A stretch of DNA of 22,744 bases from a virus, in IMG/VR virus record IMGVR_UViG_3300048507_000453, positions 1 through 22,744 of that record, one strand, 5' to 3'. Shown here piece by piece: positions 1 to 22,744 of the stretch. How positions within the stretch are numbered: the stretch's first letter is position 1; the number at the start of each line of letters is the position of its first letter. The notes under the pieces were generated by a model that made no database searches, had not been told where the DNA came from, and worked only from the letters and a program-made list of their open reading frames with translations. The translations under genes and the position numbers were made by a program.

Positions 1-68
1 TGTTTAAAACAACAGGTACAGATGTTGAAGCCAACATTATTCTACGTTGGTCAGAGGCTCAAGCGTAA
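1..68 (+). CDS. 3' end of an unidentified gene (partial)
   Basis: An open frame enters the window from the left (first full codon at base 3) and stops at TAA 66-68, leaving a 22-residue C-terminus that ends in RWSEAQA. It runs convergently into the 2OG oxygenase gene on the other strand and overlaps its last 10 bases, with no terminator between them. Too little is present to name a function. The position beside late structural genes makes a virion protein plausible, but that is only inference from context. Confidence 0.55.
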   Translation, partial: FKTTGTDVEANIILRWSEAQA

Positions 69-586
69 AGATTATAATTTACAATACAACGGGGATTGTC
101 AGTTGGAAATCCACCAGCATGTAATGTGTTACCATCAAAAATAACAATACGTCCTTTTTTAGGAGATACTCTTTGTAATTCTTTGTCACCTGCAAAGAAT
201 ATAGTATCACCATCGCTATCATTTACATAATAGATTAATCCTAAATGTTCTTCAGGTCTATCAGTATGTGGTGCGTAATGATCTAAGGTTGTTTTATGAG
301 GCACAGTAATGAAAAGCCTAGCGGCGATTATATCTATAAAATTTATATTAAGTGCTGAGCACACTATTTGCGGAACTTTACTAAAATTTCCGTAGTGTTC
401 GGTTAACTTTGTACTGCTTTTTAAAACATGTTCAAAACTTATAGGCATCACACCGTTATCAGTAGCAGTAGGTTCATATTTACATACAAGTGGTAACATT
501 GCATTAACACTAGTATTACCAAATACAAGTGTATTATAATAATCCTGTAACTCTTTTGGTATTAGATTATCTTTAACTATTATCAT
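59..586 (-). CDS. 2OG-Fe(II) oxygenase family protein
   Basis: This 175-aa protein has the signature of a 2-oxoglutarate/Fe(II)-dependent dioxygenase on a double-stranded beta-helix. The metal ligands appear as H107-T-D109 and a distal H156 in the segment DGNTLHAG, and R166 is placed to bind the 2OG carboxylate. Before the distal His is the typical strand KKGRIVIFDG. Such enzymes hydroxylate proteins, small molecules or sugars; the substrate cannot be read from the sequence. It is the last gene of the minus-strand heptose operon. Its start ATGATAATAG lies inside the 3' end of the phosphatase gene (14-nt overlap) with no clear Shine-Dalgarno, so translation is probably coupled. Its company suggests a role in glycan modification, which is inference. 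Similar oxygenases are common in marine T4-like phages. Confidence 0.75.
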   Translation of the reverse strand: MIIVKDNLIPKELQDYYNTLVFGNTSVNAMLPLVCKYEPTATDNGVMPISFEHVLKSSTKLTEHYGNFSKVPQIVCSALNINFIDIIAARLFITVPHKTTLDHYAPHTDRPEEHLGLIYYVNDSDGDTIFFAGDKELQRVSPKKGRIVIFDGNTLHAGGFPTDNPRCIVNYNLYA

Positions 587-1208
587 CTAAACTATCAACA
601 AATGCTGAAAGGTTATCAAACACTTTAGTTGCTTTTCTTATATTTTTATATGTAAATCTTTTATTAATTAATTCTTCTGTTTCTTTACCATAACCTGTGC
701 GTACAAGTATAGGCCTTGCACCCATTTTAAGAGCGGCTTTCAAATCACTTATTTTATCACCAACAAAATATCCATTTTTAAATTTTACGTGCTTTACTTC
801 TTGCTCGCAACGTTTGAACATTCCTGTATTGGGTTTTGCAAACATATCTTTTTTAGAACTACTAGCACTATAATACAATCCGTCTATACTAGGACATCCT
901 GCTTCGCCAAATTCCTTAAACATATGCTCGTGTAATTTTTCAACATCTTCTTGCTTGTAAATACCTTTTTCAATACCGCCTTGATTTGTAATAATAACAA
1001 TTTTATGCCCAAGTTTGCGTAATCTGACCACAGCATCTAAACTACCTTCTTCAAATTCCCAGTCGTCAATCTTGTAAACGTAATCTCCAATGTCTTTATT
1101 AATTACACCGTCACGGTCTAACCCAACAACACACTTTGGTGCTATCCAATCAGGTTTGTAAAAGTCAATATTGACATCATCACTCCATACTATCTTTGGG
1201 TTGCTCAT
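573..1208 (-). CDS. gmhB: HAD-family phosphatase, D,D-heptose 1,7-bisphosphate phosphatase-like
   Basis: This 211-aa HAD-superfamily phosphatase has motif I at D31-R-D33-G-V-I-N, motif II at T75-N-Q-G-G, a lysine (K125) in AKPNTGMF for motif III, and motif IV around G150-D-K-I-S-D155. The motif-I form LDRDGVIN and the TNQGG motif are typical of GmhB and related histidinol phosphatases. GmhB removes the C7 phosphate of D-glycero-D-manno-heptose 1,7-bisphosphate, between the two HldE reactions, and HldE and HldD are encoded just upstream. Oddly, the Cys/His zinc-binding loop of E. coli GmhB, between motifs II and III, is replaced here by a short serine-rich stretch (YYSASSSKK) without cysteine. 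The gene overlaps the cupin upstream and the oxygenase downstream. An AAGGA lies 10 nt before the ATG. The family call is firm; the exact substrate rests on the neighbours. Confidence 0.82.
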   Translation of the reverse strand: MSNPKIVWSDDVNIDFYKPDWIAPKCVVGLDRDGVINKDIGDYVYKIDDWEFEEGSLDAVVRLRKLGHKIVIITNQGGIEKGIYKQEDVEKLHEHMFKEFGEAGCPSIDGLYYSASSSKKDMFAKPNTGMFKRCEQEVKHVKFKNGYFVGDKISDLKAALKMGARPILVRTGYGKETEELINKRFTYKNIRKATKVFDNLSAFVDSLDDNS

Positions 1209-1605
1209 CTGATACTTTTCCTTTTATTTCTTCTAAAATACCTTCTTGACTATCTCCTGGAATAAGTCTATAATTATCTTCAACACTATCCGCGGTGCTT
1301 ACTTCTGTAATACTACTATTATCTTCAAGTGCTTCTAATTGATGCGGCAACAAAGGTTTGTTACGCCATGTCATTCCTTGTGTAAGTGTTTGGCTAAACA
1401 GTGTTGCAGTTTTTGTATCAATCCATCTAACAATAAAACTACCTTCGTTTACAAACCAAGATTCGTCTTTTTCTTTATGAAAATGCATACTAAATTTATT
1501 TCCTTTTTTAGTAAACACCATCATTTTACCACAATACTTGTCATTGGTTGCCCAAATTAATTCAAAGCCCCAACCTTTATCTACTTTACCTTCTAGTCTT
1601 TCCAT
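1180..1605 (-). CDS. Cupin-domain protein, sugar-isomerase-like
   Basis: A small single-domain cupin. It carries a K-G-W-G-F-E stretch near the N-terminus, resembling the KPWGxE motif of mannose-6-phosphate isomerase type II C-domains. A cupin metal motif follows, with H41 and H43 in SMHFHKEKDE, E48, and a later histidine (H88) in LLPHQLEAL. I start it at the ATG at 1605, giving 141 aa, because AAGGAG lies upstream at 1617-1622; a GTG at 1617 would add four residues but would leave no Shine-Dalgarno. It overlaps the 3' end of hldD by 13 nt and the phosphatase gene by 29 nt. The acidic C-terminal tail after about residue 95 looks disordered. The role may be sugar isomerisation or sugar-nucleotide binding in the heptose operon; the substrate is not known. 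Confidence 0.7.
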   Translation of the reverse strand: MERLEGKVDKGWGFELIWATNDKYCGKMMVFTKKGNKFSMHFHKEKDESWFVNEGSFIVRWIDTKTATLFSQTLTQGMTWRNKPLLPHQLEALEDNSSITEVSTADSVEDNYRLIPGDSQEGILEEIKGKVSDEQPKDSME

Positions 1606-2435
1606 GTTTCTATCCACTCCTTAGGTGTAGTAAATTTATACTCACCGATTGTACCTAGTAACTTTGTATTGTCACTACACGTATATTTTTGATATTGTCC
1701 TTTTAATGCACTAGGCATTGGTATAGGTTCTACTTTAGCATTATACTTACTAGCAATATCACTAGCAATTGAACCAAAACTAGTTGTGTCTCCGGTACCT
1801 ACATTCCATATACCCATTTCGTCTATATGCATCATTTTTTCAATAATTTGACATACATCTCCTATGTATATAAAGTCTCGCAAATATTCATCACTGCCTT
1901 CGAAAGGATGTACTTTACCTGTTTCTTTTGCTTGACTTCTAAACTTATGAAACACACTCATTTGATCACCTTTGTGTTCTTCGTGTTCTCCATATACATT
2001 GAAAAATCGTAACCCTTTAATGTTACATTTATAATCTTCCCAAGATAACATTTCAACACTTCTATCAAATAAGTATTTTGACCATGAATAAGGACTTTGA
2101 GGTTGCTTAGGAGCATCTTCGTTAAACTGTTGACCATCTCCGTATACACTAGCACTTGATGCATATATTAAATCTACACCTTGCATGTCGCATACTTGCA
2201 TTAATCTATGACTAAAGTCTAAGTTTTGTCTTAAAACTTTTTCAACATCTCGTTCAGTTGTGCTTGATATAGCACCCATATGTATAACCTTATCAAATTG
2301 ACTGCAATCAGGAACTACATTTTCAATAAATTCATACTCTGCTATACCGTGGCCTTTGCTCATTAGGTATTCTTTTAGGTTTTTACCAATAAAACCATCG
2401 GCACCTGTAATTAAAATTTTTAAACGTTCGCTCAT
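1593..2435 (-). CDS. hldD: ADP-L-glycero-D-manno-heptose 6-epimerase
   Basis: This 280-aa extended short-chain dehydrogenase/epimerase has the NAD(P)-binding glycine motif G11-A-D-G-F-I-G17 and the catalytic Y116-S-W-S-K120. The substrate-side segments YASSASVYG (91-99), GLRFFNVYGEHEEHKG (141-156) and FEGSDEYLRDFIYIGDV match HldD (RfaD) closely and separate it from UDP-glucose 4-epimerases. HldD converts ADP-D-glycero-D-manno-heptose to the L-glycero epimer, the last step before heptosyltransferases use it for LPS inner core. The E. coli enzyme is about 310 aa, so this version is slightly shorter. Its ATG overlaps the hldE stop codon (ATGA), so the two are translationally coupled. Confidence 0.9.
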   Translation of the reverse strand: MSERLKILITGADGFIGKNLKEYLMSKGHGIAEYEFIENVVPDCSQFDKVIHMGAISSTTERDVEKVLRQNLDFSHRLMQVCDMQGVDLIYASSASVYGDGQQFNEDAPKQPQSPYSWSKYLFDRSVEMLSWEDYKCNIKGLRFFNVYGEHEEHKGDQMSVFHKFRSQAKETGKVHPFEGSDEYLRDFIYIGDVCQIIEKMMHIDEMGIWNVGTGDTTSFGSIASDIASKYNAKVEPIPMPSALKGQYQKYTCSDNTKLLGTIGEYKFTTPKEWIETWKD

Positions 2436-3571
2436 TTACTGTTCTCTATAATACTTGTTGTTGAATAACCTTCTACTGTTGGAATAAGATGTACTTCTGC
2501 TAAATCATGTCCTACAACAGTTTCAACAGTATAATCTCCGCCCTTAACAATTTTATTAGGTTGTATATACTTAATTAACTCGTAAGGAGTATCTTGATCA
2601 AAAACGTGGACTTCGTCTACCCACGGTAACATTGATATCTGTTTTACTCTTTGATCAGTGTTGTTTATTGGTCTGTCATTGCCCTTGAGTCTTTTTACAC
2701 TTGCATCAGAATTAATACCTACAACGAGTTTGTTGCCTAGTTCTTTTGCTTGACGCAATAGTTCTAAATGTCCAGTGTGTAGTATATCAAAGACTCCGTT
2801 AGTAAACACAACTGTATCTTCAACATCGTCTTGGTTAAGTATGTATGTGCCTGCGTGTTTAACACTTTCAGTTGATCCTCGTATAGCAACTTCTAAACAT
2901 TTCTTGTGTGTATATCCTTTTGTAAGACTGTATACAAATCCTGCTAGGAAGCAATCACCTGCACCAGTAACGTCTGATACTTCAACTGTTTCTACAGGAA
3001 TGTTGTATTCAACTTCATCTATTTTAGCAGTAACTTTATGTCCAGCGTCAGTAGTAATAATATTACCTTGCCATTCATCAAACTCAAACTTAGTGTATTC
3101 GCTATTGTTAGGTTTAACTAACCAAGCACCTTCATAGTCATGTGCGTAACGTTTTGGATCTACGATTACTTTACAATTAAATTTATTAATATGTTTTATA
3201 ATTTGTTTAGCATTGTCTAATGTGCCTTTATCGTAATCACTTAGAACAACAATATCATATGGTCTGAAATCTGATTGTTTTATTCTTTCTAGCACAGCAT
3301 TTGAGTTTGCATCTTTATCTTCATCAATACGTGTTATGTAATGTCCATCACAAATAATTCTAGTTTTGACACTATGGTCTTCTAGTGTGTCATACATTTC
3401 TACATCTACACCTAAACTTTTTAAATTATCGTAAACTAATGCCGCTCCACCCATTGTAGTTTTTTCTTCTTTGTGTGTTACTACCGGCACAGGTGCTTCC
3501 GGACTAATACGTGTACTAGTGCCGTAAATATATTTGTCTAATATTATATCACCAATAACTAAGACTTTCAT
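2432..3571 (-). CDS. hldE: Bifunctional D-beta-D-heptose 7-phosphate kinase / heptose 1-phosphate adenylyltransferase
   Basis: This 379-aa fusion has both HldE (RfaE) activities in the usual order. The N-terminal PfkB/ribokinase-type kinase (about 1-245) shows GDIILDKYIYG, TRISPEAPVPV, MGGAALVYDNL (40-50) and the anion-hole/catalytic G203-A-G-D206. The C-terminal cytidylyltransferase-like domain (about 253-379) shows TNGVFDILHTGH with H265-T-G-H268, VVGINSDASVKRLKG and the VKGGDY segment. The kinase makes heptose 1,7-bisphosphate; the second domain makes ADP-heptose from heptose 1-phosphate. E. coli HldE is about 477 aa; most of the missing length is in the middle of the kinase domain, so the kinase is compact but its key motifs are kept. 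The start at 3571 is set by the sigma70-like promoter whose -10 box ends 5 nt upstream. It is the first gene of the operon. Confidence 0.92.
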   Translation of the reverse strand: MKVLVIGDIILDKYIYGTSTRISPEAPVPVVTHKEEKTTMGGAALVYDNLKSLGVDVEMYDTLEDHSVKTRIICDGHYITRIDEDKDANSNAVLERIKQSDFRPYDIVVLSDYDKGTLDNAKQIIKHINKFNCKVIVDPKRYAHDYEGAWLVKPNNSEYTKFEFDEWQGNIITTDAGHKVTAKIDEVEYNIPVETVEVSDVTGAGDCFLAGFVYSLTKGYTHKKCLEVAIRGSTESVKHAGTYILNQDDVEDTVVFTNGVFDILHTGHLELLRQAKELGNKLVVGINSDASVKRLKGNDRPINNTDQRVKQISMLPWVDEVHVFDQDTPYELIKYIQPNKIVKGGDYTVETVVGHDLAEVHLIPTVEGYSTTSIIENSK

Positions 3572-3576
3572 ACTAT

Positions 3577-3605
3577 ATAATAACTTACTATCTACTCTTT
3601 GTCAA
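3577..3605 (-). promoter_or_regulatory. Sigma70-type promoter for the heptose operon
   Basis: On the minus strand TTGACA (3605-3600) is followed by a 17-nt spacer and TATTAT (3582-3577). The hldE ATG begins only 5 nt after the -10 box, where transcription would be expected to start, so the mRNA is predicted to be leaderless or nearly so. The -35 box lies inside the 3' end of the Nudix gene. This would give the heptose operon early, host-polymerase transcription separate from the late neck genes upstream. Confidence 0.75.
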
Positions 3606-4032
3606 GTAAATTTAAAACTTTTGTTACAGTTTCAAGTTTACTTTGATTAATTTTACTTTGTAGTGTATTGCGTAATCCGTGGTGTAAAGGTTTTGGCCAA
3701 CTACCACTATTAACCCAAGCATACCCGTGATGCTCATCGTTTAGTATAGGAATAAATTCTTCTTTTACTGCACAAAGATATGTATGAAACTGAAACTGAT
3801 GATCGGTTGATATAAAAGTTTCAAGAGGAATAGTTTTTTCAATTTTAGGTTCAAAGCCAACCTCTTCTGTTATTTCACGTTTAAGAACTTCCCAAGGAGT
3901 TTCTTTACCTTCCCCGGTGCCACCAACTAATCCCCAGAGATTTTTGGTCTTGCCTTTAGCACGATGTAATAGTAAAAAGCGTTGTGTTTTTAGACTGTAG
4001 AACAGAGTTCCACTGCAAATTATCTTGTTCAT
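3592..4032 (-). CDS. Nudix hydrolase
   Basis: This 146-aa protein has a complete Nudix box spanning G38 to F60: G-x5-E-x7-R-E-I-T-E-E-V-G-F, which fits the consensus exactly. Nudix enzymes cleave nucleoside diphosphates linked to another moiety, such as nucleotide sugars, oxidised dNTPs, ADP-ribose or capped RNA. The N-terminal SGTLFYSLKTQRFLLLHRA segment is the usual first strand pair. The specificity is not visible. It starts 8 nt after the gp15 stop and lacks a Shine-Dalgarno, so it is probably expressed with gp14-gp15. It lies just before the ADP-heptose operon, so a nucleotide-sugar substrate is possible but unproven. Confidence 0.88.
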   Translation of the reverse strand: MNKIICSGTLFYSLKTQRFLLLHRAKGKTKNLWGLVGGTGEGKETPWEVLKREITEEVGFEPKIEKTIPLETFISTDHQFQFHTYLCAVKEEFIPILNDEHHGYAWVNSGSWPKPLHHGLRNTLQSKINQSKLETVTKVLNLLDKE

Positions 4033-4040
4033 AAAAATAA

Positions 4041-8746: not shown

Positions 8747-9354
8747 TAATAGGAATATGCGGCTTGATAGGCTGTGGTAAAGGAACAGTAGGAGATATAT
8801 TAGTTGAGAATCACGGATTTACAAAACTAAGTTTTGCTGACAAATTAAAAGATGGTGTAGCAACCGTATTTAATTGGGATAGACAAATGCTTGAAGGTGA
8901 TACTGTAGAGAGTAGAGAGTGGAGAGAAACACAAGACGAGTTTTGGACTAAAGAAACAGGACGTACTATCACACCAAGACTAGTATTACAAGAGTTTGGT
9001 ACTGATTGTATGCGTCATGGGTTTGATGACGGTATTTGGGTTAGTTTAGTAAAGCAAGAACTAGTGAAATATCCTACTAAAGACTTTGTTATTCCTGATG
9101 TAAGATTTCCTAATGAAGCAAATATGATTAAAAGTATACATGGTGAAGTATGGCGTGTAAAACGTGGTCAAGATCCTGTATGGATGCGTATGTATCAAGA
9201 TATAGGTGTTGAGCCTAAAGACGTACATGAAAGCGAATGGCGCTGGGCAAACGTAGATTTTAACAATGTTATATATAACGACTTAGGAATTGAAGAACTT
9301 AAAAGTCAGGTAAAAGATCTCCTTGTTTCCAACGAACACCTCGTTTCTGTATAA
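8743..9354 (+). CDS. 1: Deoxynucleoside monophosphate kinase (T4 gp1-like)
   Basis: The 203-aa product starts with a P-loop, G7-L-I-G-C-G-K13-G-T15, followed by the KLSFADKLKDGVATVF segment common to phage dNMP kinases. Further segments are PRLVLQEFGTDCMRHGFDDGIWV and DFVIPDVRFPNEANMI; the latter resembles the family's nucleotide-site region. T4 gp1 phosphorylates dNMPs, including the modified hmdCMP, to dNDPs for phage DNA synthesis; here the substrate range is unknown. It starts in the ATGA overlap with the second oxygenase. Its last 56 bases overlap the convergent HNH gene, so the C-terminal residues are coded on both strands. Confidence 0.82.
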   Translation: MIIGICGLIGCGKGTVGDILVENHGFTKLSFADKLKDGVATVFNWDRQMLEGDTVESREWRETQDEFWTKETGRTITPRLVLQEFGTDCMRHGFDDGIWVSLVKQELVKYPTKDFVIPDVRFPNEANMIKSIHGEVWRVKRGQDPVWMRMYQDIGVEPKDVHESEWRWANVDFNNVIYNDLGIEELKSQVKDLLVSNEHLVSV

Positions 9355-9634
9355 GACGCTGACAGTTAGCACATACTGTTTTCAAGTTTGACATTGAACA
9401 ATTATCTAAATTACCATCAATATGGAAAACGTTAAATTGCTCAGGATGTACACTCTTGTAATTACACTTTTCGCAATAGTCTTTTTTCACATATCCACGT
9501 TGCTTCCATTTAGGAACACCGTGCTTAGGGCCATTACGTAAACACGCTTCGCATTTCTTACGATAGTAGGTTTTGCCTGCTTTTTTATAATTTATAGCCG
9601 CAGGTCTTAGTTTACAATCACATAAAGGTCTCAT
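9299..9634 (-). CDS. HNH endonuclease
   Basis: This 111-aa cysteine-rich protein has C5/C7 with C28-x-x-C31, then C54-x-x-C57 and C88-x-x-C91 as zinc pairs flanking an HNH-like core, FNVFHIDGNLDN...MSNLKTVCANC, in which H71, N75 and N83 are candidate core residues. This layout is that of small free-standing HNH nucleases scattered in T4-like genomes, often homing-type enzymes; some serve packaging instead. It is the only minus-strand gene in this part of the window and sits between gp1 and gp18. Its 3' end overlaps the kinase gene by 56 bases. A GGTAAATA octamer ends 4 nt before the ATG, so late expression is possible. Confidence 0.78.
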   Translation of the reverse strand: MRPLCDCKLRPAAINYKKAGKTYYRKKCEACLRNGPKHGVPKWKQRGYVKKDYCEKCNYKSVHPEQFNVFHIDGNLDNCSMSNLKTVCANCQRLIQKRGVRWKQGDLLPDF

Positions 9635-9739: not shown

Positions 9740-12700
9740 ATGGCATTATCATCACCAGGTGTTGAGGTTAAAGTAATAGACGAAAGTTTTTACACGCCCA
9801 GCGAACCAGGCACCGTACCAATGATATTTGTTGCAACTGCCCAGGATAAGCAAAATGGGGCAGGTACTGGTACAGCACCAGGTACAACAGCGGCAAATGC
9901 AGGTAAACCTTTCTTGGTTACCTCACAAAGAGATTTAGTAGAAACATTCGGCGAACCAACATTTTATACGGATTCAAACAATAATCCGATACATGCAGGT
10001 GAACTTAATGAATATGGATTACAAGCGGCTTACTCGTTATTAGGCGTAAGCAACAGAGCATTCGTTGTTAGAGCAGGAATTGATCTTGCAGGACTAACAG
10101 CAAGCGCAGACGCACCAACAAGCGATCCAGCAAACGGCACATATTGGGTAGATACAGCAAGTACTATCTATGGTGTCTTTGAATGGAATTCAGCGGCAGT
10201 AACTACAACTGGCGGACAGTCATTTGGTTATAAAGCACCAACAGTAATTACTGACGTAACAAAATTAGTTGGTGGAGTTGCAACAGGTGCACCAAAAACA
10301 TCAGTAGGCGCAGTAGGCGATTATGCTATTACAGCGGCAAGTACACTACACAAACTATACTACAAAAATGAAAGTGGTACATGGGTTGAAGTAGGAACTG
10401 GCGCATGGAAAGCAAGTTGGGCTACAGTATCAGGTACTGCTGGTGCTACAACAACTTCAGGTTTGAACTTTACTTTAAACAGTACAACAGTAACAGCAAA
10501 CGCAACAGACGCAACAGCATTGGCGGCAGTTATTAACGGCTTGAGCATTTCAGGCGTAACTGCATCAGTTGAAGCGGCTAACGATATATTAAGATTACAC
10601 TCAACAGGTGTTAACATAGTACTAGCAGAAGGCACAGGCGCATTAGGCGACATGGGTCTTGTAGCAGGAACTTATGCGGCACCGGCGTTGAATATTGCCC
10701 CTCATACAAGTGTTCCCGAGTTTGGTTCAGGCGATACAACTCCACGTCCAACAGGAAGTATTTGGGCTAAAACTACAACTGCAAATAAAGGTGCCAAATG
10801 GGCTATCAAAGCATGGAACAGTGCAACTAAATTATGGGACACTAAAGATGTTCCAATCTTTAGCACAAACCAAGCGGCGTTAGCAACACTTGATAAATCA
10901 GGTGGCGGAGTAAACTTAGGAACTGATTCACTTTACATCAAATCAAATGATGCAGAAGCAAGTGACTTAGTTGCTAACTTTAAAGTTTACAAACGTTCAG
11001 CAACAGGCGCAACAACAATTACATCAAGTGCAGTTTCAACACAAGCATCTAGTGGTACAGCATCATTTACTCTTCAAGAGTCAATTGTAGGCAGTGCATC
11101 ATTAGGTAGTGCAATTACAGTATCACAAGCAGTCGACGGTGACGCAGGTGATGCAGATCATATTGCAGGTGCAATCAACTCAGCAGGACTTACAAACGTA
11201 AGTGCAAGTGTTGATAGTGCTAACAGAGTTGTAATTTCACACTCAAAAGGTGGTGACTTTAGAATTAAAGACACAAGCGGACACTTAGCACAAATTGGTT
11301 TTAGTACATCAGATACTACAAACTTATATGCGGCTCCAGCAGGCGATACAAGTGCAGACTTTATTGCTACAAACTGGAAAGTACTAAGTGCAACTAATGG
11401 TCCAGATGCTCCAACAGCATTAGCAACAGATGGTACACTATGGTACAATTCAGTTGTTGATGAAGCAGACATTATGGTACACAATGGTACTACTTGGGTA
11501 GGTTATCAAGATTCAACTAGTCCGTACTTTGCGGCGGCGACAGGCGATAAAACTGACCCTGCAGGACCAATTGTAAGTGCAACTGAGCCACTAGCGGCAA
11601 CAGGACAATCAGATGGAACTGCTCTTAAAGATGGTGACATTTGGATTAATACAACAAACATTGACAAGTATCCAGAGATTTATCGCTGGTCACATGCTAA
11701 ACAACAATGGGTATTATTAGATTCAAGTGATCAAACTACACAAGACGGTGTACTATTTGGTGATGCACGTTGGTCAACAGCAGGTGCAAACAGCAAAGAA
11801 GCAACTATTGTTGAGTTACTTACAAGTAACTTCTTAGACTTTGATGCTCCAGATCCTGCACTATATCCAAAAGGCATGATTTTGTTCAACACACGCAGAA
11901 GCGGTTTCAATGTTAAGAAATTTGTACGTAACTACATTGACTTAACAGCAGATAACGGACGTGACGGCGATGCACCAATGAATGGCTACTATCCACACAG
12001 ATGGATTACTGAGTCAGCAAACAACGCAGATGGTTCAGGTAAGTTTGGTCAATCAGCACAGAGAGCAGTTGTTGTACAAGCAATGCAAGCAATGATTAAT
12101 AGCAACCAAGATATTAGAGATGACGAATCAAGAATCTTTAACTTAATGGCGGCACCAGGTTATCCAGAACTAATCGGCGAAATGATTTCACTAAACTATG
12201 ACAGAGGCTTAACAGCATTTGTTGTAGGTGATTCACCAGCAACACTAGATTCAAGTGCTACTTCACTTAACGAATGGGGCACAAACGTTGCTCTTGCAGT
12301 TGAAGATAATAGCGATGGACTAGTAAGTAGAGATGAATACTTAGGTGTTTATTACCCATGGGGCTTCACAAGTGACAACGCAGGTAACAACATTGTTGTT
12401 CCGCCAAGTCATATGATGCTAAGAACTATTGCATTAAGTGATCAAGTTTCGTTTCCATGGTTTGCTCCAGCAGGAACAAGACGTGGTGGAGTTACTAACG
12501 CAACAGCAACAGGTTACATTGATAACGAAGGCGAATTTGTATCAATTGCACTAAATGAAGGACAGCGTGATACGCTATTTGGAATTAGTGTTAACCCTAT
12601 TACATTTATTACAGGCGCAGGACTTGTTTGTTTCGGACAGAAAACAAGAGCAAAGAATGCAAGTGCATTAGATAGAGTAAACGTTGCTAGACTTGTAATT

Positions 12701-12988
12701 TACATGCGTAGTCAACTTAATAAACTTGCTAAGCCTTATATCTTTGAGCCAAATGATAAGATCACACGTGATGAGATCAAACAAGCGGCTGAAAGTTTAA
12801 TGCTTGAGTTAGTTGGAAGTAGAGCACTATACGACTACATAGTGGTTTGTGATGAATCTAACAATACTCCAAGTAGAATTGATAGAAACGAACTATACTT
12901 AGATATAGCAATTGAACCAGTTAAGGCTGTGGAATTCATTTATATTCCATTAAGACTTAAGAATACAGGGGAGATTGCAGGATTATAA
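9740..12988 (+). CDS. 18: Tail sheath protein (T4 gp18-like), oversized
   Basis: The contractile sheath subunit, 1082 aa against about 659 in T4. The N-terminus (SSPGVEVKVIDES, then PFLVTSQRDLVETFGEP) and the C-terminal 390 residues are typical sheath. The latter include LFNTRRSGFNVKKFVRNY, NNIVVPPSHMMLRTIALSD, the GTRRGGVTNA loop and GLVCFGQKTRAKNASALDRVNVARL. The extra length, about residues 125-690, holds five aromatic hairpin modules (near 130-150, 190-219, 338-370, 563-590 and 630-658), built on a pattern like DG-[TD]-[IL]-W...W. Between them are two alanine/threonine-rich domains (about 225-310 and 410-525). The insert would lie on the outer sheath surface, as the variable domains of T4 gp18 do. 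It has its own late promoter, a strong AAGGAG, and a hairpin after the stop. Confidence 0.93.
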   Translation: MALSSPGVEVKVIDESFYTPSEPGTVPMIFVATAQDKQNGAGTGTAPGTTAANAGKPFLVTSQRDLVETFGEPTFYTDSNNNPIHAGELNEYGLQAAYSLLGVSNRAFVVRAGIDLAGLTASADAPTSDPANGTYWVDTASTIYGVFEWNSAAVTTTGGQSFGYKAPTVITDVTKLVGGVATGAPKTSVGAVGDYAITAASTLHKLYYKNESGTWVEVGTGAWKASWATVSGTAGATTTSGLNFTLNSTTVTANATDATALAAVINGLSISGVTASVEAANDILRLHSTGVNIVLAEGTGALGDMGLVAGTYAAPALNIAPHTSVPEFGSGDTTPRPTGSIWAKTTTANKGAKWAIKAWNSATKLWDTKDVPIFSTNQAALATLDKSGGGVNLGTDSLYIKSNDAEASDLVANFKVYKRSATGATTITSSAVSTQASSGTASFTLQESIVGSASLGSAITVSQAVDGDAGDADHIAGAINSAGLTNVSASVDSANRVVISHSKGGDFRIKDTSGHLAQIGFSTSDTTNLYAAPAGDTSADFIATNWKVLSATNGPDAPTALATDGTLWYNSVVDEADIMVHNGTTWVGYQDSTSPYFAAATGDKTDPAGPIVSATEPLAATGQSDGTALKDGDIWINTTNIDKYPEIYRWSHAKQQWVLLDSSDQTTQDGVLFGDARWSTAGANSKEATIVELLTSNFLDFDAPDPALYPKGMILFNTRRSGFNVKKFVRNYIDLTADNGRDGDAPMNGYYPHRWITESANNADGSGKFGQSAQRAVVVQAMQAMINSNQDIRDDESRIFNLMAAPGYPELIGEMISLNYDRGLTAFVVGDSPATLDSSATSLNEWGTNVALAVEDNSDGLVSRDEYLGVYYPWGFTSDNAGNNIVVPPSHMMLRTIALSDQVSFPWFAPAGTRRGGVTNATATGYIDNEGEFVSIALNEGQRDTLFGISVNPITFITGAGLVCFGQKTRAKNASALDRVNVARLVIYMRSQLNKLAKPYIFEPNDKITRDEIKQAAESLMLELVGSRALYDYIVVCDESNNTPSRIDRNELYLDIAIEPVKAVEFIYIPLRLKNTGEIAGL

Positions 12989-13056: not shown

Positions 13057-13686
13057 ATGGCAATTTCAACACTCTCAAAAATTACAGTACCACTAGCGAG
13101 CGACGCATCTGCATCAACACAAGGTTTGTTGATGCCGAAACTACAGTATCGCTTTAGAGTGACACTTGAGAACTTTGGTGTATCAACACCGACAACAGAA
13201 CTTACAAAACAAGTAATTGATGTAACACGCCCAACAGTAAACTTTGAGGAATTAGAAATTCCAGTTTACAATAGTAGAGCATACCTAGCAGGTCGTCCTA
13301 CTTGGGAACCAATTACATTGAACTTAAGAGAAGATGTTAACAACAGTGTACAAAAACTAGTTGGCGAACAACTTCAGAAACAATTTGACTTTTTCGAACA
13401 GTCAAGTGCGGCATCAGGTATTGATTACAAATACACAACACGTATTGAAATCTTAGATGGTGGTAACGGTGCTAACACACCAAACGTACTAGAAACATTC
13501 GAGTTATACGGTTGCTTTATCCAAAACGCAAACTATAACACACTAGCATATAGTTCAAATGAACCAGTAACTATTGCATTAGCAATGCGTTACGACAACG
13601 CTATCCAATCACCACAAGGTGAAGGAATTGGTACAGCAGTTGGTAGAACTATTAACAGTCTAGTAACAGGCGGCGGCGGAATATAA
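13057..13686 (+). CDS. 19: Tail tube protein (T4 gp19-like)
   Basis: This 209-aa protein matches the gp19 tail tube family: LQYRFRVTLENFG, VTRPTVNFEELEIPVYNSRAYLAGRPTWEPITLNLRED, then QKQFDFFEQSSAASGIDYKY and LETFELYGCFIQNANY. T4 gp19 (163 aa) stacks in hexameric rings to form the rigid inner tube through which DNA passes; this version is longer, including a glycine-rich tail (TGGGGI). It has its own late promoter and AGGAG, and a strong terminator follows, so it is likely one of the most independently expressed genes here. Confidence 0.93.
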   Translation: MAISTLSKITVPLASDASASTQGLLMPKLQYRFRVTLENFGVSTPTTELTKQVIDVTRPTVNFEELEIPVYNSRAYLAGRPTWEPITLNLREDVNNSVQKLVGEQLQKQFDFFEQSSAASGIDYKYTTRIEILDGGNGANTPNVLETFELYGCFIQNANYNTLAYSSNEPVTIALAMRYDNAIQSPQGEGIGTAVGRTINSLVTGGGGI

Positions 13687-15403: not shown

Positions 15404-15841
15404 ATGTCACGGTTTGCACAGGGAAAATATAACCTAAAAAATCCAGACAAGTACATAGGCAATAGAACTCCTACTTATAGAAGTAGTTGGGAATTTGCGT
15501 TTATGAAAATGTGCGACGAACATGCGTATATTCAAGCATGGGCTAGTGAAGCAGTAAAAATTCCTTATAGAAATCCATTAACTGGTAAGCATACAATATA
15601 TGTACCAGATTTTTTTATTGCATATGCAAATAAAAATGGCAGTAGGAAAGTTGAGATAATAGAAGTCAAACCTGAAAATCAAACGCTAAAAGAAAAACTA
15701 GGTCGTAGCAAACACAACCAAGCGGCATGGATTGTTAACCAAGCAAAATGGGAAGCCGCTAGAGCATGGTGTAAACAAAAAGGAATGTATTTTAGAATAG
15801 TTACTGAGCAAGATATCTTCCACAGCGGAAGGAGACGATAA
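15404..15841 (+). CDS. 4: Head completion protein/nuclease (T4 gp4-like)
   Basis: This 145-aa protein aligns by motif with T4 gp4 (also called gp50/65): PDKYIGNRTPTYRSSWEFAF, IQAWASEAVKIPYRNPLTGK, YVPDFFI, EIIEVKPENQTL and NQAKWEAARAWCKQKGMYFRIVTEQD. The likely TnsA/PD-(D/E)xK-type active-site residues are E30 (SSWE), D69 (VPDF) and E87-x-K89 (EVKP). gp4 is needed to finish filled heads before tail joining, and this family has a nuclease-like core. It lies 4 nt after the preceding stop and its stop overlaps the methyltransferase ATG (TAATG). Confidence 0.9.
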   Translation: MSRFAQGKYNLKNPDKYIGNRTPTYRSSWEFAFMKMCDEHAYIQAWASEAVKIPYRNPLTGKHTIYVPDFFIAYANKNGSRKVEIIEVKPENQTLKEKLGRSKHNQAAWIVNQAKWEAARAWCKQKGMYFRIVTEQDIFHSGRRR

Positions 15842-16470
15842 TGAATTTAGCAGAATACAAATCAAAAATGTTTGATATAGCAAACAGTCATCCCAAAAAA
15901 GCAAGGGGTGCAAAATATATCAGACAATGGGATATACACTATCCAGAAAAAGAATACATGGTTAAAAAAGCAGAAGAGTTTGGTATGCTGAAAGATGTAA
16001 AGACAGCAGTTGACATAGGTACTGGTGTAGGAATGTTGCCATACATGCTTATGCAAAAAGGTATACATGTTGAAGCAACTGATGTCGACGAAGAGCAAAC
16101 AGGTCCAATGTACAAACAATGCTGTGATATCATTAATTTAAAAAGACACTATTTGTGGATTGACAATGGTAAGCCTATGGACTTTCCGGGCAAATATGAT
16201 TTGTTTATTGCTAGTAGGACATGCTTTGATAGAGAGTGTTTACCACCAGGAGAACTATTTGACTGGAAGTTTTTCTTTAATGATGTATTTCAATATGTAG
16301 ATAAAGTGTTTATCAAAACAAATAATGCAGGAAGTGGTAAAGGATATCCTGAGTACTTACTTCCTTATTTGTACAATCCAGCAGGCGAAGGACTAGGCAA
16401 ACCATTCAGAGCATGGTATATACGCATCACTAAAGAAAAATGGGAGCAAGACCCTAATTCTGCTAAATAA
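15841..16470 (+). CDS. Class I SAM-dependent methyltransferase, substrate unknown
   Basis: This 209-aa protein has a Rossmann methyltransferase motif I, V57-D-I-G-T-G-V-G-M-L-P-Y, and an acidic motif II, EATDVDEE (D81). A YDLFIASRTCFDRECLPPGE region follows where the substrate motif would lie. There is no DPPY/NPPY (adenine-N6) motif and no PC motif of cytosine-5 enzymes, so it does not look like a standard DNA methylase. It ends at TAA 16468-16470, inside a GCTAAATA octamer. It is inserted between the head completion gene and small terminase, coupled to gp4 by TAATG, so it should be expressed late. The target could be protein, RNA or a small molecule. Confidence 0.8.
   Translation: MNLAEYKSKMFDIANSHPKKARGAKYIRQWDIHYPEKEYMVKKAEEFGMLKDVKTAVDIGTGVGMLPYMLMQKGIHVEATDVDEEQTGPMYKQCCDIINLKRHYLWIDNGKPMDFPGKYDLFIASRTCFDRECLPPGELFDWKFFFNDVFQYVDKVFIKTNNAGSGKGYPEYLLPYLYNPAGEGLGKPFRAWYIRITKEKWEQDPNSAK
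16462..16469 (+). promoter_or_regulatory. Possible late promoter for gp16
   Basis: GCTAAATA overlaps the methyltransferase stop codon, 26 nt before the gp16 ATG. The predicted leader is about 21 nt with only a weak GGA before the start. It differs from the consensus at the second position (C for A), so it is a weaker call. Confidence 0.5.
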
Positions 16471-17581: not shown

Positions 17582-17582
17582 T

Positions 17583-18746: not shown

Positions 18747-18762
18747 CACCCCCCAACTATTC

Positions 18763-18789
18763 AATAGGACCTTCGGGTCCTATTTTTTT
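18763..18789 (+). terminator. Rho-independent terminator with UUCG tetraloop
   Basis: AATAGGACC (18763-18771) pairs with GGTCCTATT (18776-18784) over a TTCG loop, followed by a T-run to 18789. The 9-bp stem with a C(UUCG)G loop is a textbook strong terminator. It ends 1 nt before the gp17 late octamer, so gp17 is largely insulated from upstream transcription. Confidence 0.93.
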
Positions 18790-18790
18790 C

Positions 18791-18798
18791 GGTAAATA
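18791..18798 (+). promoter_or_regulatory. Late promoter for gp17, 5 nt from start codon
   Basis: GGTAAATA followed by TTACT and then ATG at 18804. There is no Shine-Dalgarno between the upstream terminator and the ATG, so a leaderless gp17 mRNA is predicted. The second position is G, not A. Confidence 0.65.
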
Positions 18799-18803
18799 TT
18801 ACT

Positions 18804-20384
18804 ATGAGCAAATCACTTGACGGCGTATTAATTAAAAAAGCCAATAAAAGAGAAACATTTACTAATGATCAAGTAGAGCAGTTACTTAAATGTAGCGATC
18901 CTAAACTTGGGTACGATTACTTTGCTCGTAACTTTGCATACATACAGCATCCTGTTAAAGGCAAACTATTATTTGATCCGTATGAATATCAAACAAGATT
19001 ACTTTCAAGTTATCACGATTATAGATTTAATATTAATATGTTGCCTAGACAAACAGGCAAAACTACCTGTGCCGCAATTTACTTGTTATGGTATGCAATG
19101 TTTATACCTGACCAAACAATACTAATTGCCGCACACAAGTATACAGGCGCACAAGAAATTATGCAACGTATTAGATACGGATATGAAATGTGTGCTGATC
19201 ATATTAGAGCAGGTGTTACAAACTACAACAAAGGTTCAATTGAATTTGAAAATGGTTCACGTATTGTAAGTGCTACTACAACAGGCAACACAGGACGTGG
19301 TATGTCCATATCATTACTATACTGTGACGAGTTTGCATTTGTTATGCCTAATGTTGCTACAGACTTTTGGACATCAATATCACCTACACTAGCAACAGGT
19401 GGTCGTGCTATTCTTACAAGTACACCAAACTCAGATGAAGATACTTTTGCTACTATATGGAAACAAGCAGAAGATAAGTTTGATGAACACGGCAACGAAA
19501 ATGAATTAGGTAAAAACGGATTTCATAGTTTTCGCAGTTACTGGCAAGAACATCCTGACAGAGATGACGTTTGGAAAAAAGAAGAATTAGGACGCATAGG
19601 TGAAGAAAGATTTAAACGTGAATATGATTGTGAATTTTTAGTATACGACGAAACATTAATTAATTCAATAAAACTTGCGGCAATGGAAGGTAACAATCCT
19701 ATTATTAATATGGGACAAACACGCTGGTATAAAAAACCAAGTCCAGAATTTACATATGCAGTAGCACTTGATCCTAGTATGGGTACTGGTGGCGATAATG
19801 CGGCTATACAAGTATTTGAATTACCTAGTTATGAACAGGTAGCAGAATGGCAACACAATACTACAGCAATTCCAGCACAAATAAGAATAATGACAGATAT
19901 ATGCAAACACATTGAACAAGAAACTGGTGATGCTAACGGGATATATTGGAGTGTTGAAAACAATGGATTAGGAGAAGCGGCACTTATTGTAATCAATGAT
20001 TTTGGTGAAGAAAATATACCCGGACTATTTGTAAGTGAACCTATTAGAAAAGGACATGTACGTAAGTTTCGTAAAGGATTTAATACTACCCATGGTAGTA
20101 AAGTTACAGCCTGTAGCCGACTAAAAACCATGATTGAAAATGATAAAATGGTTCTACATAGTAAACCTATGATAAGTGAACTGAAAAACTATGTAGCAAC
20201 TGGCTCTAGTTATAATGCAAAACTAGGTCAAACAGACGATTTGATTAGTGCAACGCTACTAGCACTAAGAATGATGGATGTATTGAAAGATTGGGATCCA
20301 AGAATCTATGATACCTTCAATCAATCAGACCAGCACGGAGATTATGTAGAACCAATGCCAATCTTCGTTAGTAACAATTATTGA
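18804..20384 (+). CDS. 17: Large terminase subunit (T4 gp17-like)
   Basis: This 526-aa packaging motor has ATPase and nuclease domains in the usual order. Walker A is at P81-R-Q-T-G-K-T-T88 and Walker B with catalytic Glu at L171-L-Y-C-D-E176. The coupling region is near TSTPNSDEDTF. The RNase H-like nuclease domain shows D323 in ALDPSMGTGGDNAA, E385 in YWSVENNGLGEA and D479 in GQTDDLISATLLALRMM, matching the acidic triad of gp17. T4 gp17 is about 610 aa; this one has a shorter N-terminus. It translocates DNA into the prohead and cuts the concatemer. The stop TGA lies in the next gene's late octamer. No intein or intron disrupts it. Confidence 0.95.
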   Translation: MSKSLDGVLIKKANKRETFTNDQVEQLLKCSDPKLGYDYFARNFAYIQHPVKGKLLFDPYEYQTRLLSSYHDYRFNINMLPRQTGKTTCAAIYLLWYAMFIPDQTILIAAHKYTGAQEIMQRIRYGYEMCADHIRAGVTNYNKGSIEFENGSRIVSATTTGNTGRGMSISLLYCDEFAFVMPNVATDFWTSISPTLATGGRAILTSTPNSDEDTFATIWKQAEDKFDEHGNENELGKNGFHSFRSYWQEHPDRDDVWKKEELGRIGEERFKREYDCEFLVYDETLINSIKLAAMEGNNPIINMGQTRWYKKPSPEFTYAVALDPSMGTGGDNAAIQVFELPSYEQVAEWQHNTTAIPAQIRIMTDICKHIEQETGDANGIYWSVENNGLGEAALIVINDFGEENIPGLFVSEPIRKGHVRKFRKGFNTTHGSKVTACSRLKTMIENDKMVLHSKPMISELKNYVATGSSYNAKLGQTDDLISATLLALRMMDVLKDWDPRIYDTFNQSDQHGDYVEPMPIFVSNNY

Positions 20385-20390
20385 TAAATA
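20383..20390 (+). promoter_or_regulatory. Late promoter overlapping the gp17 stop, 5 nt from next start
   Basis: GATAAATA, whose first bases are part of the gp17 stop TGA, is followed by TTAGC and ATG at 20396. There is no Shine-Dalgarno. It is the fourth case of the exact 5-nt octamer-to-ATG spacing. Confidence 0.7.
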
Positions 20391-20395
20391 TTAGC

Positions 20396-22558
20396 ATGAA
20401 AGACTTAAATAAAATTGGCGAAGAACTGTTTTCTAAACTTAGAGGAAGGTTTAAAAACATTACTATAGGTAATGCTGAGGGTGTTGTTACTAATACACCT
20501 AGCGAATCACGCTTTTATGACTTTGTATACGGAAATCAAGGTGGTAAAGTAAGTGTTAGTTTAGACGAAGAGGCTGTAGTTGTTATGTATAGCGAGAATC
20601 TATTTGATTCAAACGATGCATCAATAAAAAGAAAATGGTACGATTTTTTAAAAGAAATGAGAGTATTTGCCAAGAAAAGAATGTTAAACTTTGAAGTGAG
20701 AGACATACAGAAGTCAAACTTAGAAAAGAGAGATTACAAATTCTTATCTAATAAGAACGGAGATAACACCATGACAGAATCAACGATGTACGGAACTAGC
20801 AAAACTAGTTACCAGAATATAGCAGATGCAAGAATTTGTGTTAAGCACAGCGAAAGCATTAACCAAGAATTAGCAGGCGGAAGATCACAAAAGATTGGAA
20901 GCATTTACATTGAAAGTGCAAACGGCGAACGTTTTAAATATCCATTTAAACATTTGAACGGTGCAAGAGCAATGGCCCGTCACGTAGCAGAAGGCGGAAA
21001 CATGTACGACGACTTTGGTAAGCACATTGTCGGACTATCAGAAGAAATGAATAAACTACGTAAGTTCAAAACATATATGTCAAGAAGCAGTGTCATGGCT
21101 GAAGGTCTTGCAGGATATATGGATGTTGTTAACGAGCGTATTGAAACAGTTAAGAATACAGTAGCAAAATTACAAAACAAAGCACACTATACAGAAGCAA
21201 CTTCAAATTTCCAAAGTGTTGTTCTTGAAGAAGTGCCAGAAGATGTAGCAACTGATTGGACTACACAACTTACAATTAAACAGTTCAATGAAGAACTAAA
21301 AGGTGTTTTTCCATACATTTATAAATTAGTAAGTGAAGCAAATGCAATTAAAGAATTAGGACCTGAAGAACTTTTAGGTGAAGCAGATAAAGACAAACAG
21401 GATAACGGAACAGATAAAATGGATGTTACAGATGCTGATAAAAAAGCAAATACTCCTGCATACAAAAGAATGAAAGCAGGCGACAAACGCTACAACGATA
21501 AAACTACAAAAGAAAATGTAAATGAATCAGACTTCGACAGAGATAGTGTAACCTATGATGAAGTATTACCATTTGTAAAGATGACTTACAAAACGTTACT
21601 AAATGATATTCAAAAAACAAGAAAAGAGATAGAACAATATAAAGCAAACGGCGACGACGGCGAAGAAGGTGGCGACATTGCTATGGTAGCACCATACCTT
21701 AAAGATTTAAAAGATATGCAACCATATGTGCAAAAGATTCTTGATAATCCAGATATGGACATCGAAACTGTTGCTGACCATATGATGCCAGGTGCTTTAG
21801 ATACATCTCCAAGAGAAGACCTAATTGGAAGATTTAAAAAATCATTTTCTAAAGATCCACAACTTGCAAAAAGATTATTTAAAGATCCTGATTTAGATTT
21901 TCATTCAGAAGATGATGAATCAACTATTCCAACAGAAGCAGACATTGATGCAGGCTTTGAAGAAATGATGGGCCAGTTTAGTGAAAAAGCAAAACCAGAC
22001 TTTTTAGATATGGATGGCGATGGCGACAAAGAAGAGCCAATGAAAAAAGCAATCGATGATAAAGAAGATGGCGACGAAGACGAAACAGATGAAGGCAATG
22101 CATATGCACACGCAGTACGCAAAGCAAAAATGGACGGCAAGAAAAAAGGTGATAAAATAGATCATCCAGATGATGACGAAGAAGATATCACACTAGAAAA
22201 AGATCAAAATATACCGTTACCAGAAAAGATTTTATCATTGTTTGATAGAGAAGAAGGAACATTTCCAAAAGGCGAAACAGCAGTATTAACTATGGTTGAA
22301 AAAGACTATGGTGAGCAGTACATTGCGCCAGCAAAGCAATTTATTGAAAAAATACTTAGTAAGTATGAATCAGTAATGCAAGGCCCAGCAGTACAAGAGA
22401 TGGAAGCAGAGCATGAGCCAGAGAAGATTACACTGGCTGTAACAGCAGATATTGAAGCAATGAAAAGAGCGGCAGGCATAGGCGAGAGCGAAAGACCTGC
22501 TTCGAACACAAAATTAGACGTTAGTCAAAACGATCTTTACAAATTAGCAGGGCTATAA
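20396..22558 (+). CDS. Large acidic conserved marine T4-like protein (unknown)
   Basis: A 720-aa protein with no known enzyme motif. It has an N-terminal domain (about 1-115: KRKWYDFLKEMRVFAKKRMLNFEVRD) and a second domain from about 126 (MYGTSKTSYQNIADARICVKHSE, then GERFKYPFKHLNGARAMARHVAEGGNMYDDFG). The rest is a long acidic, probably flexible part. I recall both N-terminal patterns from conserved cyanophage proteins of unknown function. A D538-M-D-G-D-G-D544 acidic loop near LDMDGDGDKEEPMKKA resembles half an EF-hand, but the usual position-12 acid is missing. The start at 20396 is preferred over a TTG at 20381 because a late octamer sits between them. An in-frame ATG at 20771 with GGAGA upstream could begin a shorter 595-aa form. 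Confidence 0.75.
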   Translation: MKDLNKIGEELFSKLRGRFKNITIGNAEGVVTNTPSESRFYDFVYGNQGGKVSVSLDEEAVVVMYSENLFDSNDASIKRKWYDFLKEMRVFAKKRMLNFEVRDIQKSNLEKRDYKFLSNKNGDNTMTESTMYGTSKTSYQNIADARICVKHSESINQELAGGRSQKIGSIYIESANGERFKYPFKHLNGARAMARHVAEGGNMYDDFGKHIVGLSEEMNKLRKFKTYMSRSSVMAEGLAGYMDVVNERIETVKNTVAKLQNKAHYTEATSNFQSVVLEEVPEDVATDWTTQLTIKQFNEELKGVFPYIYKLVSEANAIKELGPEELLGEADKDKQDNGTDKMDVTDADKKANTPAYKRMKAGDKRYNDKTTKENVNESDFDRDSVTYDEVLPFVKMTYKTLLNDIQKTRKEIEQYKANGDDGEEGGDIAMVAPYLKDLKDMQPYVQKILDNPDMDIETVADHMMPGALDTSPREDLIGRFKKSFSKDPQLAKRLFKDPDLDFHSEDDESTIPTEADIDAGFEEMMGQFSEKAKPDFLDMDGDGDKEEPMKKAIDDKEDGDEDETDEGNAYAHAVRKAKMDGKKKGDKIDHPDDDEEDITLEKDQNIPLPEKILSLFDREEGTFPKGETAVLTMVEKDYGEQYIAPAKQFIEKILSKYESVMQGPAVQEMEAEHEPEKITLAVTADIEAMKRAAGIGESERPASNTKLDVSQNDLYKLAGL

Positions 22559-22601
22559 TAGTCCTGTTATAAGTTTTATTTCTTTTTCTTTAAAAAAAGA
22601 C

Positions 22602-22630
22602 TTGACATTGTTAGCAGTTTAGTATATAAT
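22602..22630 (+). promoter_or_regulatory. Consensus sigma70 promoter
   Basis: TTGACA (22602-22607), a 17-nt spacer and TATAAT (22625-22630): both boxes match the consensus and the spacing is optimal. Transcription should start near 22637, giving a leader of about 60 nt that ends in AGGAGG (22683-22688), 8 nt before ATG 22697. This is the strongest early-type promoter in the window and marks the end of the late block. Confidence 0.88.
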
Positions 22631-22650
22631 AATAACTGTGCTACTAACAA
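22608..22650 (+). repeat. Inverted repeat around the -10 box (possible operator)
   Basis: TTGTTAG (22608-22614, in the promoter spacer) and CTAACAA (22644-22650, just after the start site) are perfect 7-bp inverted arms centred on the -10 box. A repressor dimer or DNA loop could use them. The arms are AT-rich, so chance cannot be excluded. Confidence 0.35.
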
Positions 22651-22661
22651 ACTAAGGCACA
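22637..22661 (+). promoter_or_regulatory. Possible 5'-terminal mRNA hairpin
   Basis: TGTGC (22637-22641) can pair with GCACA (22657-22661) across 15 nt, at the predicted 5' end of the transcript. It may protect the mRNA or take part in translational control. It is only a 5-bp stem, so the call is tentative. Confidence 0.35.
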
Positions 22662-22696
22662 AAGGCTATAAGGCAATTACATAGGAGGCATTTATT

Positions 22697-22744
22697 ATGG
22701 CATCATTAGCAGAAATCAGAGCAAAACTGAAATCTCAAGAAACG
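22697..22744 (+). CDS. 5' end of an early gene, possibly gp32-like ssDNA-binding protein (partial)
   Basis: The window ends 16 codons into this gene, which begins MASLAEIRAKLKSQET. It has an AGGAGG 8 nt before the ATG, a long leader and a perfect sigma70 promoter, all pointing to strong early expression. The N-terminus is reminiscent of gp32-type single-stranded DNA-binding proteins of marine T4-like phages, which would suit such expression, but 16 residues cannot prove it. Confidence 0.45.
   Translation, partial: MASLAEIRAKLKSQET

What the first reader, a model, noticed from the sequence alone, without database searches (positions are those of the whole stretch)
1..22744. The tetranucleotide AGCT appears to be absent from the whole window
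Reading every GC dinucleotide in the 22.7 kb, I found no AGCT on either strand (it is its own reverse complement). With A and T near 0.32 and G and C near 0.18 each, chance predicts several tens of copies (about 75). Other 4-bp palindromes such as TGCA, GATC, CTAG, GTAC and GGCC do occur. In coding regions an Ala codon after a codon ending in A is GCA or GCG, not GCT. Such total loss points to strong selection, most simply against a host restriction enzyme of AluI specificity, or another AGCT-directed defence.
Basis: partly seen in the sequence, partly recalled or inferred. Interest (0 to 1): 0.8.

Follow-up and report, generated by a model that had tools for sequence, protein, structure and literature searches.

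The report
Jumbo phages purged of restriction sites
This uncultured phage has lost every copy of two short DNA words (AGCT and GCAGC/GCTGC) of the kind that bacterial restriction enzymes cut, while its relatives have lost other words or none, most likely a record of the bacterial defences that each lineage has had to survive.

Summary
AGCT occurs 0 times in 22,744 bp (53.6 expected from trinucleotides; 86.7, sd 7.6, in shuffles). A second word, GCWGC, is also empty: 0 against 25.2 (sd 4.9). A 182-kb contig 86% identical to the window has AGCT 0/394 and GCWGC 0/193. The window is a fragment of a T4-like phage whose longer relatives reach 335-358 kb. AGCT loss marks one well-supported terL clade of 14 rows (13 with 0, one with 1); the nearest relatives, 83% identical in terL DNA, have AGCT. 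Other lineages have 0 CATG, CTAG, GCGC or TGCA. Over 320 loci, O/E<0.1 was found in 86 of 4,426 palindromic 4-mer tests and 0 of 37,540 non-palindromic ones. AGCT does not reappear between window and the 86%-identical relative. DNA methyltransferases are rare (PF00145 0, PF01555 1 of 128 records). Best reading: restriction-site avoidance driven by host Type II enzymes cutting AGCT and GCWGC. Host and enzymes were not found. The kind is known; the scale and the change of missing word between relatives are notable.

The parts
1..22744 (.). Whole window free of AGCT (0 copies) and of GCWGC (0 copies)
9740..12988 (+). tail sheath gene; one of the genes of this structural block, kept in the same order in PA5oct and Phosso, all without AGCT here
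   Evidence: PHROG tail sheath 1e-226
13057..13686 (+). tail tube gene; query for 80 of the related loci
   Evidence: PHROG tail tube
18804..20384 (+). terminase large subunit; gene on which the clade of AGCT-free phages was defined
   Evidence: tblastn to annotated terminases, best 54% aa; tree
9299..9634 (-). small HNH-like ORF, examined and rejected as the cause: found in 30 of 34 records, with and without AGCT
   Evidence: weak PHROG HNH match E 0.007
15841..16470 (+). ORF with a methyltransferase-like motif by eye, no Pfam or PHROG match; 78-80% identical copies in AGCT-bearing G004 and G016, so not an explanation of the loss

Best explanation
The lineage has infected, over a long time, hosts whose Type II restriction enzymes cut AGCT and GCWGC. 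Phage genomes with fewer such sites survived entry more often, so every site was lost, largely by codon-neutral change, and new ones are removed as they arise. The phage does not appear to protect itself by methylation. Sister lineages met other enzymes and lack other words. Shown: the losses, their clade pattern, their self-complementary nature, the lack of reappearance, the rarity of DNA methyltransferase genes. Inferred: that the agents are restriction enzymes, and that they belong to the hosts.
For: 0 AGCT and 0 GCWGC in window, G003 57 kb and G086 182 kb. AGCT loss in one clade, AGCT present in the other 67 terL loci. Other lineages lack CATG, CTAG, GCGC or TGCA. 86 of 4,426 palindromic against 0 of 37,540 non-palindromic 4-mer tests; 57 of 6,897 quasi-palindromic (all GCWGC) against 9 of 107,901 other 5-mer tests; clustered: 10/887, 0/7,397, 10/1,422, 5/22,034. 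0 of 133 and 0 of 176 sister sites kept. 0 of 58 single-base changes at one-step neighbours made AGCT, controls 27-64%. PF00145 in 0 and PF01555 in 1 of 128 records. Words recognised by orthodox Type II systems are those that lytic phages lose (PMC6286503).
Against: No host and no cognate enzyme were found. No complete genome of the AGCT-free clade was seen. A non-palindromic word, CGAAA, is lost in other relatives (3/74, 0/26, 0/13). GATC, GTAC and TCGA are never lost (0 of 318, 318, 251 loci), a narrower list than common restriction specificities would suggest. L008, inside the clade, has one AGCT near its contig end.
Confidence: 0.83

Rival explanations
1. The phage itself encodes nucleases that cut AGCT and GCWGC, against host or rival DNA, and its empty genome takes the place of a protecting methyltransferase.
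For: The state is held across a clade diverged to 82% in terL DNA, which is long for strain-variable host systems; about half of a genome of this size is unseen for the clade.
Against: No lineage-specific nuclease recognised in 57 kb of G003 or among 83 of 172 ORFs of G086 scanned by Pfam and PADLOC. The nuclease-like genes found there (SegE-like GIY-YIG, HhH-GPD protein, small HNH) also occur in relatives rich in AGCT.
Confidence: 0.07
2. Mutation, not selection: methylation of AGCT followed by C-to-T deamination wore the sites away.
For: AACT plus AGTT account for 14 of 133 (against G004) and 28 of 176 (against G016) aligned sister sites.
Against: AGCA plus TGCT are commoner (39 of 133; 38 of 176); these compare living relatives, not ancestors, and no neutral spectrum was worked out. 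Mutation alone would leave some sites, and the phages rarely encode DNA methyltransferases.
Confidence: 0.03
3. Composition, codon usage or an assembly artefact.
For: CGCG, GCGC and GGCC are mildly low in many loci, so some compositional effects exist.
Against: Trinucleotide and dinucleotide controls; G+C is 0.36-0.37 in nearly all terL loci with or without AGCT; GCT is used freely unless it would make AGCT; four metagenomes yielded both an AGCT-free and an AGCT-bearing relative (sample numbers, counts).
Confidence: 0.01
4. Another host defence that recognises the same words without being a classical Type II system, for example a modification-linked or non-cleaving system.
For: CGAAA loss in relatives is not self-complementary.
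Against: Nearly all other losses are self-complementary, as expected of orthodox Type II enzymes.
Confidence: 0.06

Closest known systems
Restriction-site avoidance in lytic dsDNA phages (Rusinov et al. 2018, PMC6286503; passages, Discussion part 1 of 2)
   Same: Loss of words of orthodox Type II systems, up to complete elimination (about one-tenth of viral genomes by the abstract).
   Different: Here two words are empty over at least 182 kb (394 and 193 expected) and the missing word differs between relatives; host unknown. The passages read do not speak of jumbo phages (0 occurrences of 'jumbo').
GANTC depletion in pelagiphages (PMC9516812; passages, section 12)
   Same: A site depleted in some clades of a marine phage group and not in others, linked there to host methylation.
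   Different: One word in small phages, depleted; here several words, each lost completely in its own lineages, in a jumbo-phage group.
AGCT and GCWGC methylation in environmental genomes (PMC6329791; passages)
   Same: Both words exist as methylated motifs: AGCT with GATC in a Thaumarchaeota genome, GCWGC with GANTC and TTAA in Chloroflexi genomes; TseI named as cutter of GCWGC.
   Different: Different organisms have the two words; both methyltransferases are listed there without a restriction partner; the window keeps GATC (61) and TTAA (184), so neither set fits the phage.
Pseudomonas phage PA5oct (Arenbergviridae) and Sinorhizobium phage Phosso
   Same: Closest annotated terminases (54% and 50% aa) and similar order of structural genes.
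   Different: No loss of AGCT, GCWGC, CATG, CTAG, GCGC or TGCA in the 41.6-kb stretches counted.

Membership tests
Restriction-site avoidance against Type II systems | Word far below compositional expectation | tested here: met
Restriction-site avoidance against Type II systems | Avoided words are self-complementary, of Type II character | tested here: met
   AGCT and GCWGC; over 320 loci 86/4,426 palindromic against 0/37,540 non-palindromic 4-mers. Exception in other relatives: CGAAA.
Restriction-site avoidance against Type II systems | Not shared by relatives irrespective of defence (not compositional) | tested here: met
   67 of 67 other terL loci keep AGCT at O/E 0.52 or more; tree
Restriction-site avoidance against Type II systems | Selection continues against new sites | tested here: met
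   no AGCT, GCAGC or GCTGC on either side of the window-G086 alignment
Restriction-site avoidance against Type II systems | Host encodes an enzyme of that specificity | not testable with these tools
   host unknown; terL search in bacterial genomes found two contigs of one mixed bin
Phage self-protection by its own DNA methyltransferase | DNA methyltransferase gene in the phage | tested here: not met
   PF00145 0 of 128, PF01555 1 of 128 records over cut-off; PF02086 0 of 29 virus records. Records are fragments; other methyltransferase families not searched.
Phage-encoded nuclease with empty genome as protection | Nuclease gene confined to avoiding lineages | tested here: inconclusive
   none recognised in G003 or 83 of 172 G086 ORFs; rest of genome unseen

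The most novel reading that the evidence does not exclude
The unseen half of these genomes encodes lineage-specific nucleases that cut the very words the phage lacks, so that an empty genome replaces the methyltransferase of a restriction-modification pair; exchange of the nuclease would then explain why sister lineages lack different words.
Probability: 0.07. Interest if true: 0.85.

Novelty: new member of a known kind. Interest (0 to 1): 0.52.

Why it matters
If right, the empty words are a readable record of the restriction enzymes of uncultured hosts. Where both words could be scored, 26 of 27 AGCT-free loci also lack GCWGC, and 0 of 12 CATG-free loci do; after clustering the first stays (5 of 5, p 7e-4), the second cannot be tested (one CATG cluster). 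That suggests separate host groups and a way to match phages to hosts by methylome. It also shows complete clearing of hundreds of 4-bp sites from a large genome, a demanding case for theories of how avoidance evolves.

Tried and rejected
Small HNH ORF of the window as the agent: found in 30 of 34 records, with and without AGCT (the 4 misses are short fragments). Gene-content comparison of AGCT-, CATG-, GCGC- and CTAG-free contigs for a gene absent from AGCT-rich contigs that might be a nuclease: none recognised, by eye and by tblastn among fetched contigs only. PADLOC 'Type II nicking endonuclease' match in G086 (E 1e-4): an ORF with a 60% identical copy in AGCT-rich G084 contig 57. SegE-like GIY-YIG gene in G086: 63-74% identical copies in G111, G084, G009 and G016. 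Host by terL in bacterial genomes: 12 stretches matched a pattern, 2 were relatives, both in one Neomarinimicrobiota MAG (contigs of 335 and 153 kb). That bin's three PF00145 genes lie on other contigs, one beside an ORF that looks to me like a small terminase (by eye), so no host is claimed. Host lead from a TonB-dependent receptor gene in G086: 52 of 120 genomes of that phylum match, best 27% identity; plasmids about 25%; not informative. Literature: searches listed no paper, as far as titles and abstracts show, that reports this pattern; two papers on large or jumbo phages were opened by term search only. The library lacks most subscription papers and all preprints. Limits of the counts: the 320 loci overlap and are related (some are two cuts of one contig), so counts are not independent; clustering by a shared 60-mer gives 63 clusters but over-merges (one holds 133 loci). 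Tests need an expected count of 10 (8 for tree and pair tables); shorter loci drop out. The terL tree is a FastTree run, 21 of 80 inner branches open.
Full report
What was checked. AGCT is absent from the window: 0 in 22,744 bp against 53.6 expected from trinucleotide counts and 86.7 (sd 7.6) in dinucleotide shuffles. It is the most depleted of the 256 tetranucleotides.

What the window is. It is a 22.7-kb virus record with tail sheath, tail tube, head-closure and terminase genes and a deoxynucleoside monophosphate kinase. The terminase matches 2,519 annotated phage records, best a Pseudomonas jumbo phage of the PA5oct type at 54% aa; megablast finds no annotated phage. Its relatives reach 335 and 358 kb as single contigs, hence 'jumbo'.

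The relatives. 159 loci were fetched by terL and tail tube and 160 by DNA polymerase and helicase of a relative. The 13 terL loci at 90% or more (L001-L013) hold one AGCT in 118,242 bp, in L008, 186 bases from the contig end; they come from 12 metagenomes. The other 67 terL loci all keep AGCT, lowest O/E 0.52. Whole contigs: G003 (57 kb; 100% identical HNH protein to the window's) AGCT 0/132 and GCWGC 0/71; G014 (86 kb) CATG 0/242; G010 (55 kb) CATG 0/148; G019 (118 kb) GCGC 0/93; G020 (55 kb) CTAG 0/103, GCWGC 0/60, AGCT 6/111; G004 (70 kb) GCWGC 7/87 and CGCG 5/39; G009 (201 kb) and G016 (100 kb) no 4- or 5-mer under O/E 0.2. G086 (182 kb) AGCT 0/394 and GCWGC 0/193; G116 (53 kb, 65-72% identical to the window) AGCT 0/100, GCWGC 0/44; G130 (33 kb) AGCT 0/75; G111 (358 kb) no 4- or 5-mer lost. 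G084 contig 57 (335 kb): GCWGC 35/413, AGCT present throughout, an intermediate state. G086 is 86.2% identical to the window, closer than L013 in the clade (82% in terL); it was not itself in the tree.

Phylogeny. On a terL tree of 104 rows the AGCT-free rows form one clade of 14 with support 100 (13 with 0, L008 with 1); AGCT is also lost in L141 and nearly in L136-L138 (3-4 left). Fewest changes: AGCT 3, GCWGC 7, CATG 3, CTAG 1. The closest differing pairs in terL DNA: AGCT 83.4% (61% at fourfold sites; the partner has AGCT 13/17), GCWGC 86.1% (62%) and 84.0% (74%), CATG 85.1% (61%), CTAG 76.4% (57%). Within the AGCT-free clade terL diverges to 82%, so the state has been held long.

Specificity. 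Over 320 overlapping and related loci (3.8 Mb), O/E<0.1 at expected count 10 or more: 86 of 4,426 palindromic 4-mer tests, 0 of 37,540 other 4-mer tests, 57 of 6,897 quasi-palindromic 5-mer tests (all GCWGC), 9 of 107,901 other 5-mer tests. In 63 clusters: 10/887, 0/7,397, 10/1,422, 5/22,034. By word: AGCT 48 of 314 loci, CATG 13 of 318, CTAG 13 of 317, CGCG 7 of 105 (27 more partly low), GCGC 3 of 210 (35 partly low), TGCA 1 of 320, ACGT 1 of 314; none for GATC (318), GTAC (318), TCGA (251), CCGG (141), GGCC (220; 20 partly low) and the four A/T words (320 each).

How sites were lost. In 40 orthologue pairs with G004 (65% aa; 49% identity at fourfold sites), 133 AGCT sites of G004 gave 0 AGCT in G003; control words kept 12-34%. 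Replacements: AGCA 26, TGCT 13, AACT 8, TGCA 7, AGTT 6. Against G016, 0 of 176 kept: AGCA 27, AACT 14, AGTT 14, TGCT 11. So the two C-to-T outcomes are 14 of 133 and 28 of 176, not the majority; ancestors and a neutral spectrum were not worked out. In the window GCT after a codon ending in A is 0 of 189, AGC before T 0 of 43, NAG before CTN 0 of 56; in G004 these are 129 of 610, 33 of 169 and 32 of 129. All three reading frames therefore lose AGCT, each with a codon-neutral exit used. Between window and G086, over 22,058 aligned columns, no AGCT, GCAGC or GCTGC occurs on either side, while TGCA, ACGT, GTAC, CATG, GATC and CTAG each differ at 42-127 places; of 58 single-base changes at one-step neighbours (both directions counted) none made AGCT, controls 27-64%. 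Selection acts against the word now or did until recently.

Artefact control. Four metagenomes each yielded an AGCT-free and an AGCT-bearing relative (L010/L014, L002/L038, L011/L032, L007/L072; sample numbers, counts).

Which agent. Self-complementary words are what orthodox Type II enzymes recognise, and these are the words that lytic phages lose (PMC6286503). AGCT and GCWGC are known methylated words in environmental genomes, but in different organisms and with methyltransferases listed without restriction partner (PMC6329791, passages). The AluI name for AGCT comes from the finding and my own knowledge. The phages rarely carry DNA methyltransferases: PF00145 in 0 and PF01555 in 1 (G125) of 128 records, with one more match under the cut-off and broken by a stop (G094); PF02086 in 0 of 29 virus records. 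These are fragments and other families were not searched. No restriction enzyme confined to avoiding lineages was recognised in G003 or among 83 of 172 ORFs of G086 scanned against Pfam and PADLOC (for one batch 25 of 27 Pfam families were shown); the nuclease-like genes there also occur in AGCT-rich relatives. Host enzymes are thus the best explanation, not shown.

Structure among losses. Where both words could be scored: 26 loci lack AGCT and GCWGC, 1 only AGCT, 42 only GCWGC, 165 neither; CATG-free loci lack GCWGC in 0 of 12; CTAG-free loci lack GCWGC in 8 of 8 and AGCT in 10 of 12. In clusters: AGCT and GCWGC 5, 0, 7, 32 (p 7e-4); the CATG and CTAG relations rest on one cluster each and are not significant. 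This suggests, no more, one host group with GCWGC enzymes to which AGCT or CTAG enzymes are added and another with CATG enzymes.

Against the reading. CGAAA, not self-complementary, is lost in G096 (3/74), L330 (0/26) and L332 (0/13); L330 is the locus from G096. CATCC is low in three or more loci. GTGCAC is low (O/E 0 to 0.43) in all 13 contigs over 50 kb, avoiders or not, unexplained. No host, no enzyme and no complete genome of the AGCT-free clade was seen.

Novelty. Site avoidance is long known, and clade-wise GANTC depletion was described in pelagiphages (PMC9516812, section 12). Within the searches I saw no report of complete removal of two words over 182 kb or more of a jumbo phage, or of the missing word changing between close relatives.

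Noticed in passing
window 573-3571, minus strand: Cluster of a HAD phosphatase, a cupin-like gene, a NAD-dependent epimerase and a PfkB-cytidylyltransferase fusion; by recall it resembles an ADP-heptose pathway, which would alter surface sugars.
   Followed up: no
L421:12126-14338 (G086, close relative): A TonB-dependent receptor gene (Pfam barrel and plug) with a DUF6580 gene beside it in a phage contig. tblastn against 50,697 phage records gave 3 hits covering 14%, at least two of them bacterial by name.
   Followed up: partly
G096 (L431-L435), L330, L332: CGAAA, a non-palindromic word, is almost absent (3/74, 0/26, 0/13), unlike the palindromic losses elsewhere.
   Followed up: no
L199:5583-15589 (G019) and L418 (G086): Runs of genes that look like radical SAM enzymes: 8 Pfam matches in one batch of G086 ORFs; by eye in G019.
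   Followed up: no
13 contigs over 50 kb, e.g. G084 contig 57, G111, G096: GTGCAC is low in all 13 (e.g. 2/64, 2/55, 0/21), whichever 4-mer is lost; cause unknown.
   Followed up: no
PBPT01000016.1 and PBPT01000082.1 (L230, L231): A Neomarinimicrobiota MAG (RS350) holds contigs of 335 and 153 kb of this phage group with near-identical word counts: a mixed bin or a host hint.
   Followed up: partly
L137, L365, L115, L142, L155: CATCC is strongly low in some loci (e.g. 3/28, 2/16, 0/11), another non-palindromic word.
   Followed up: no
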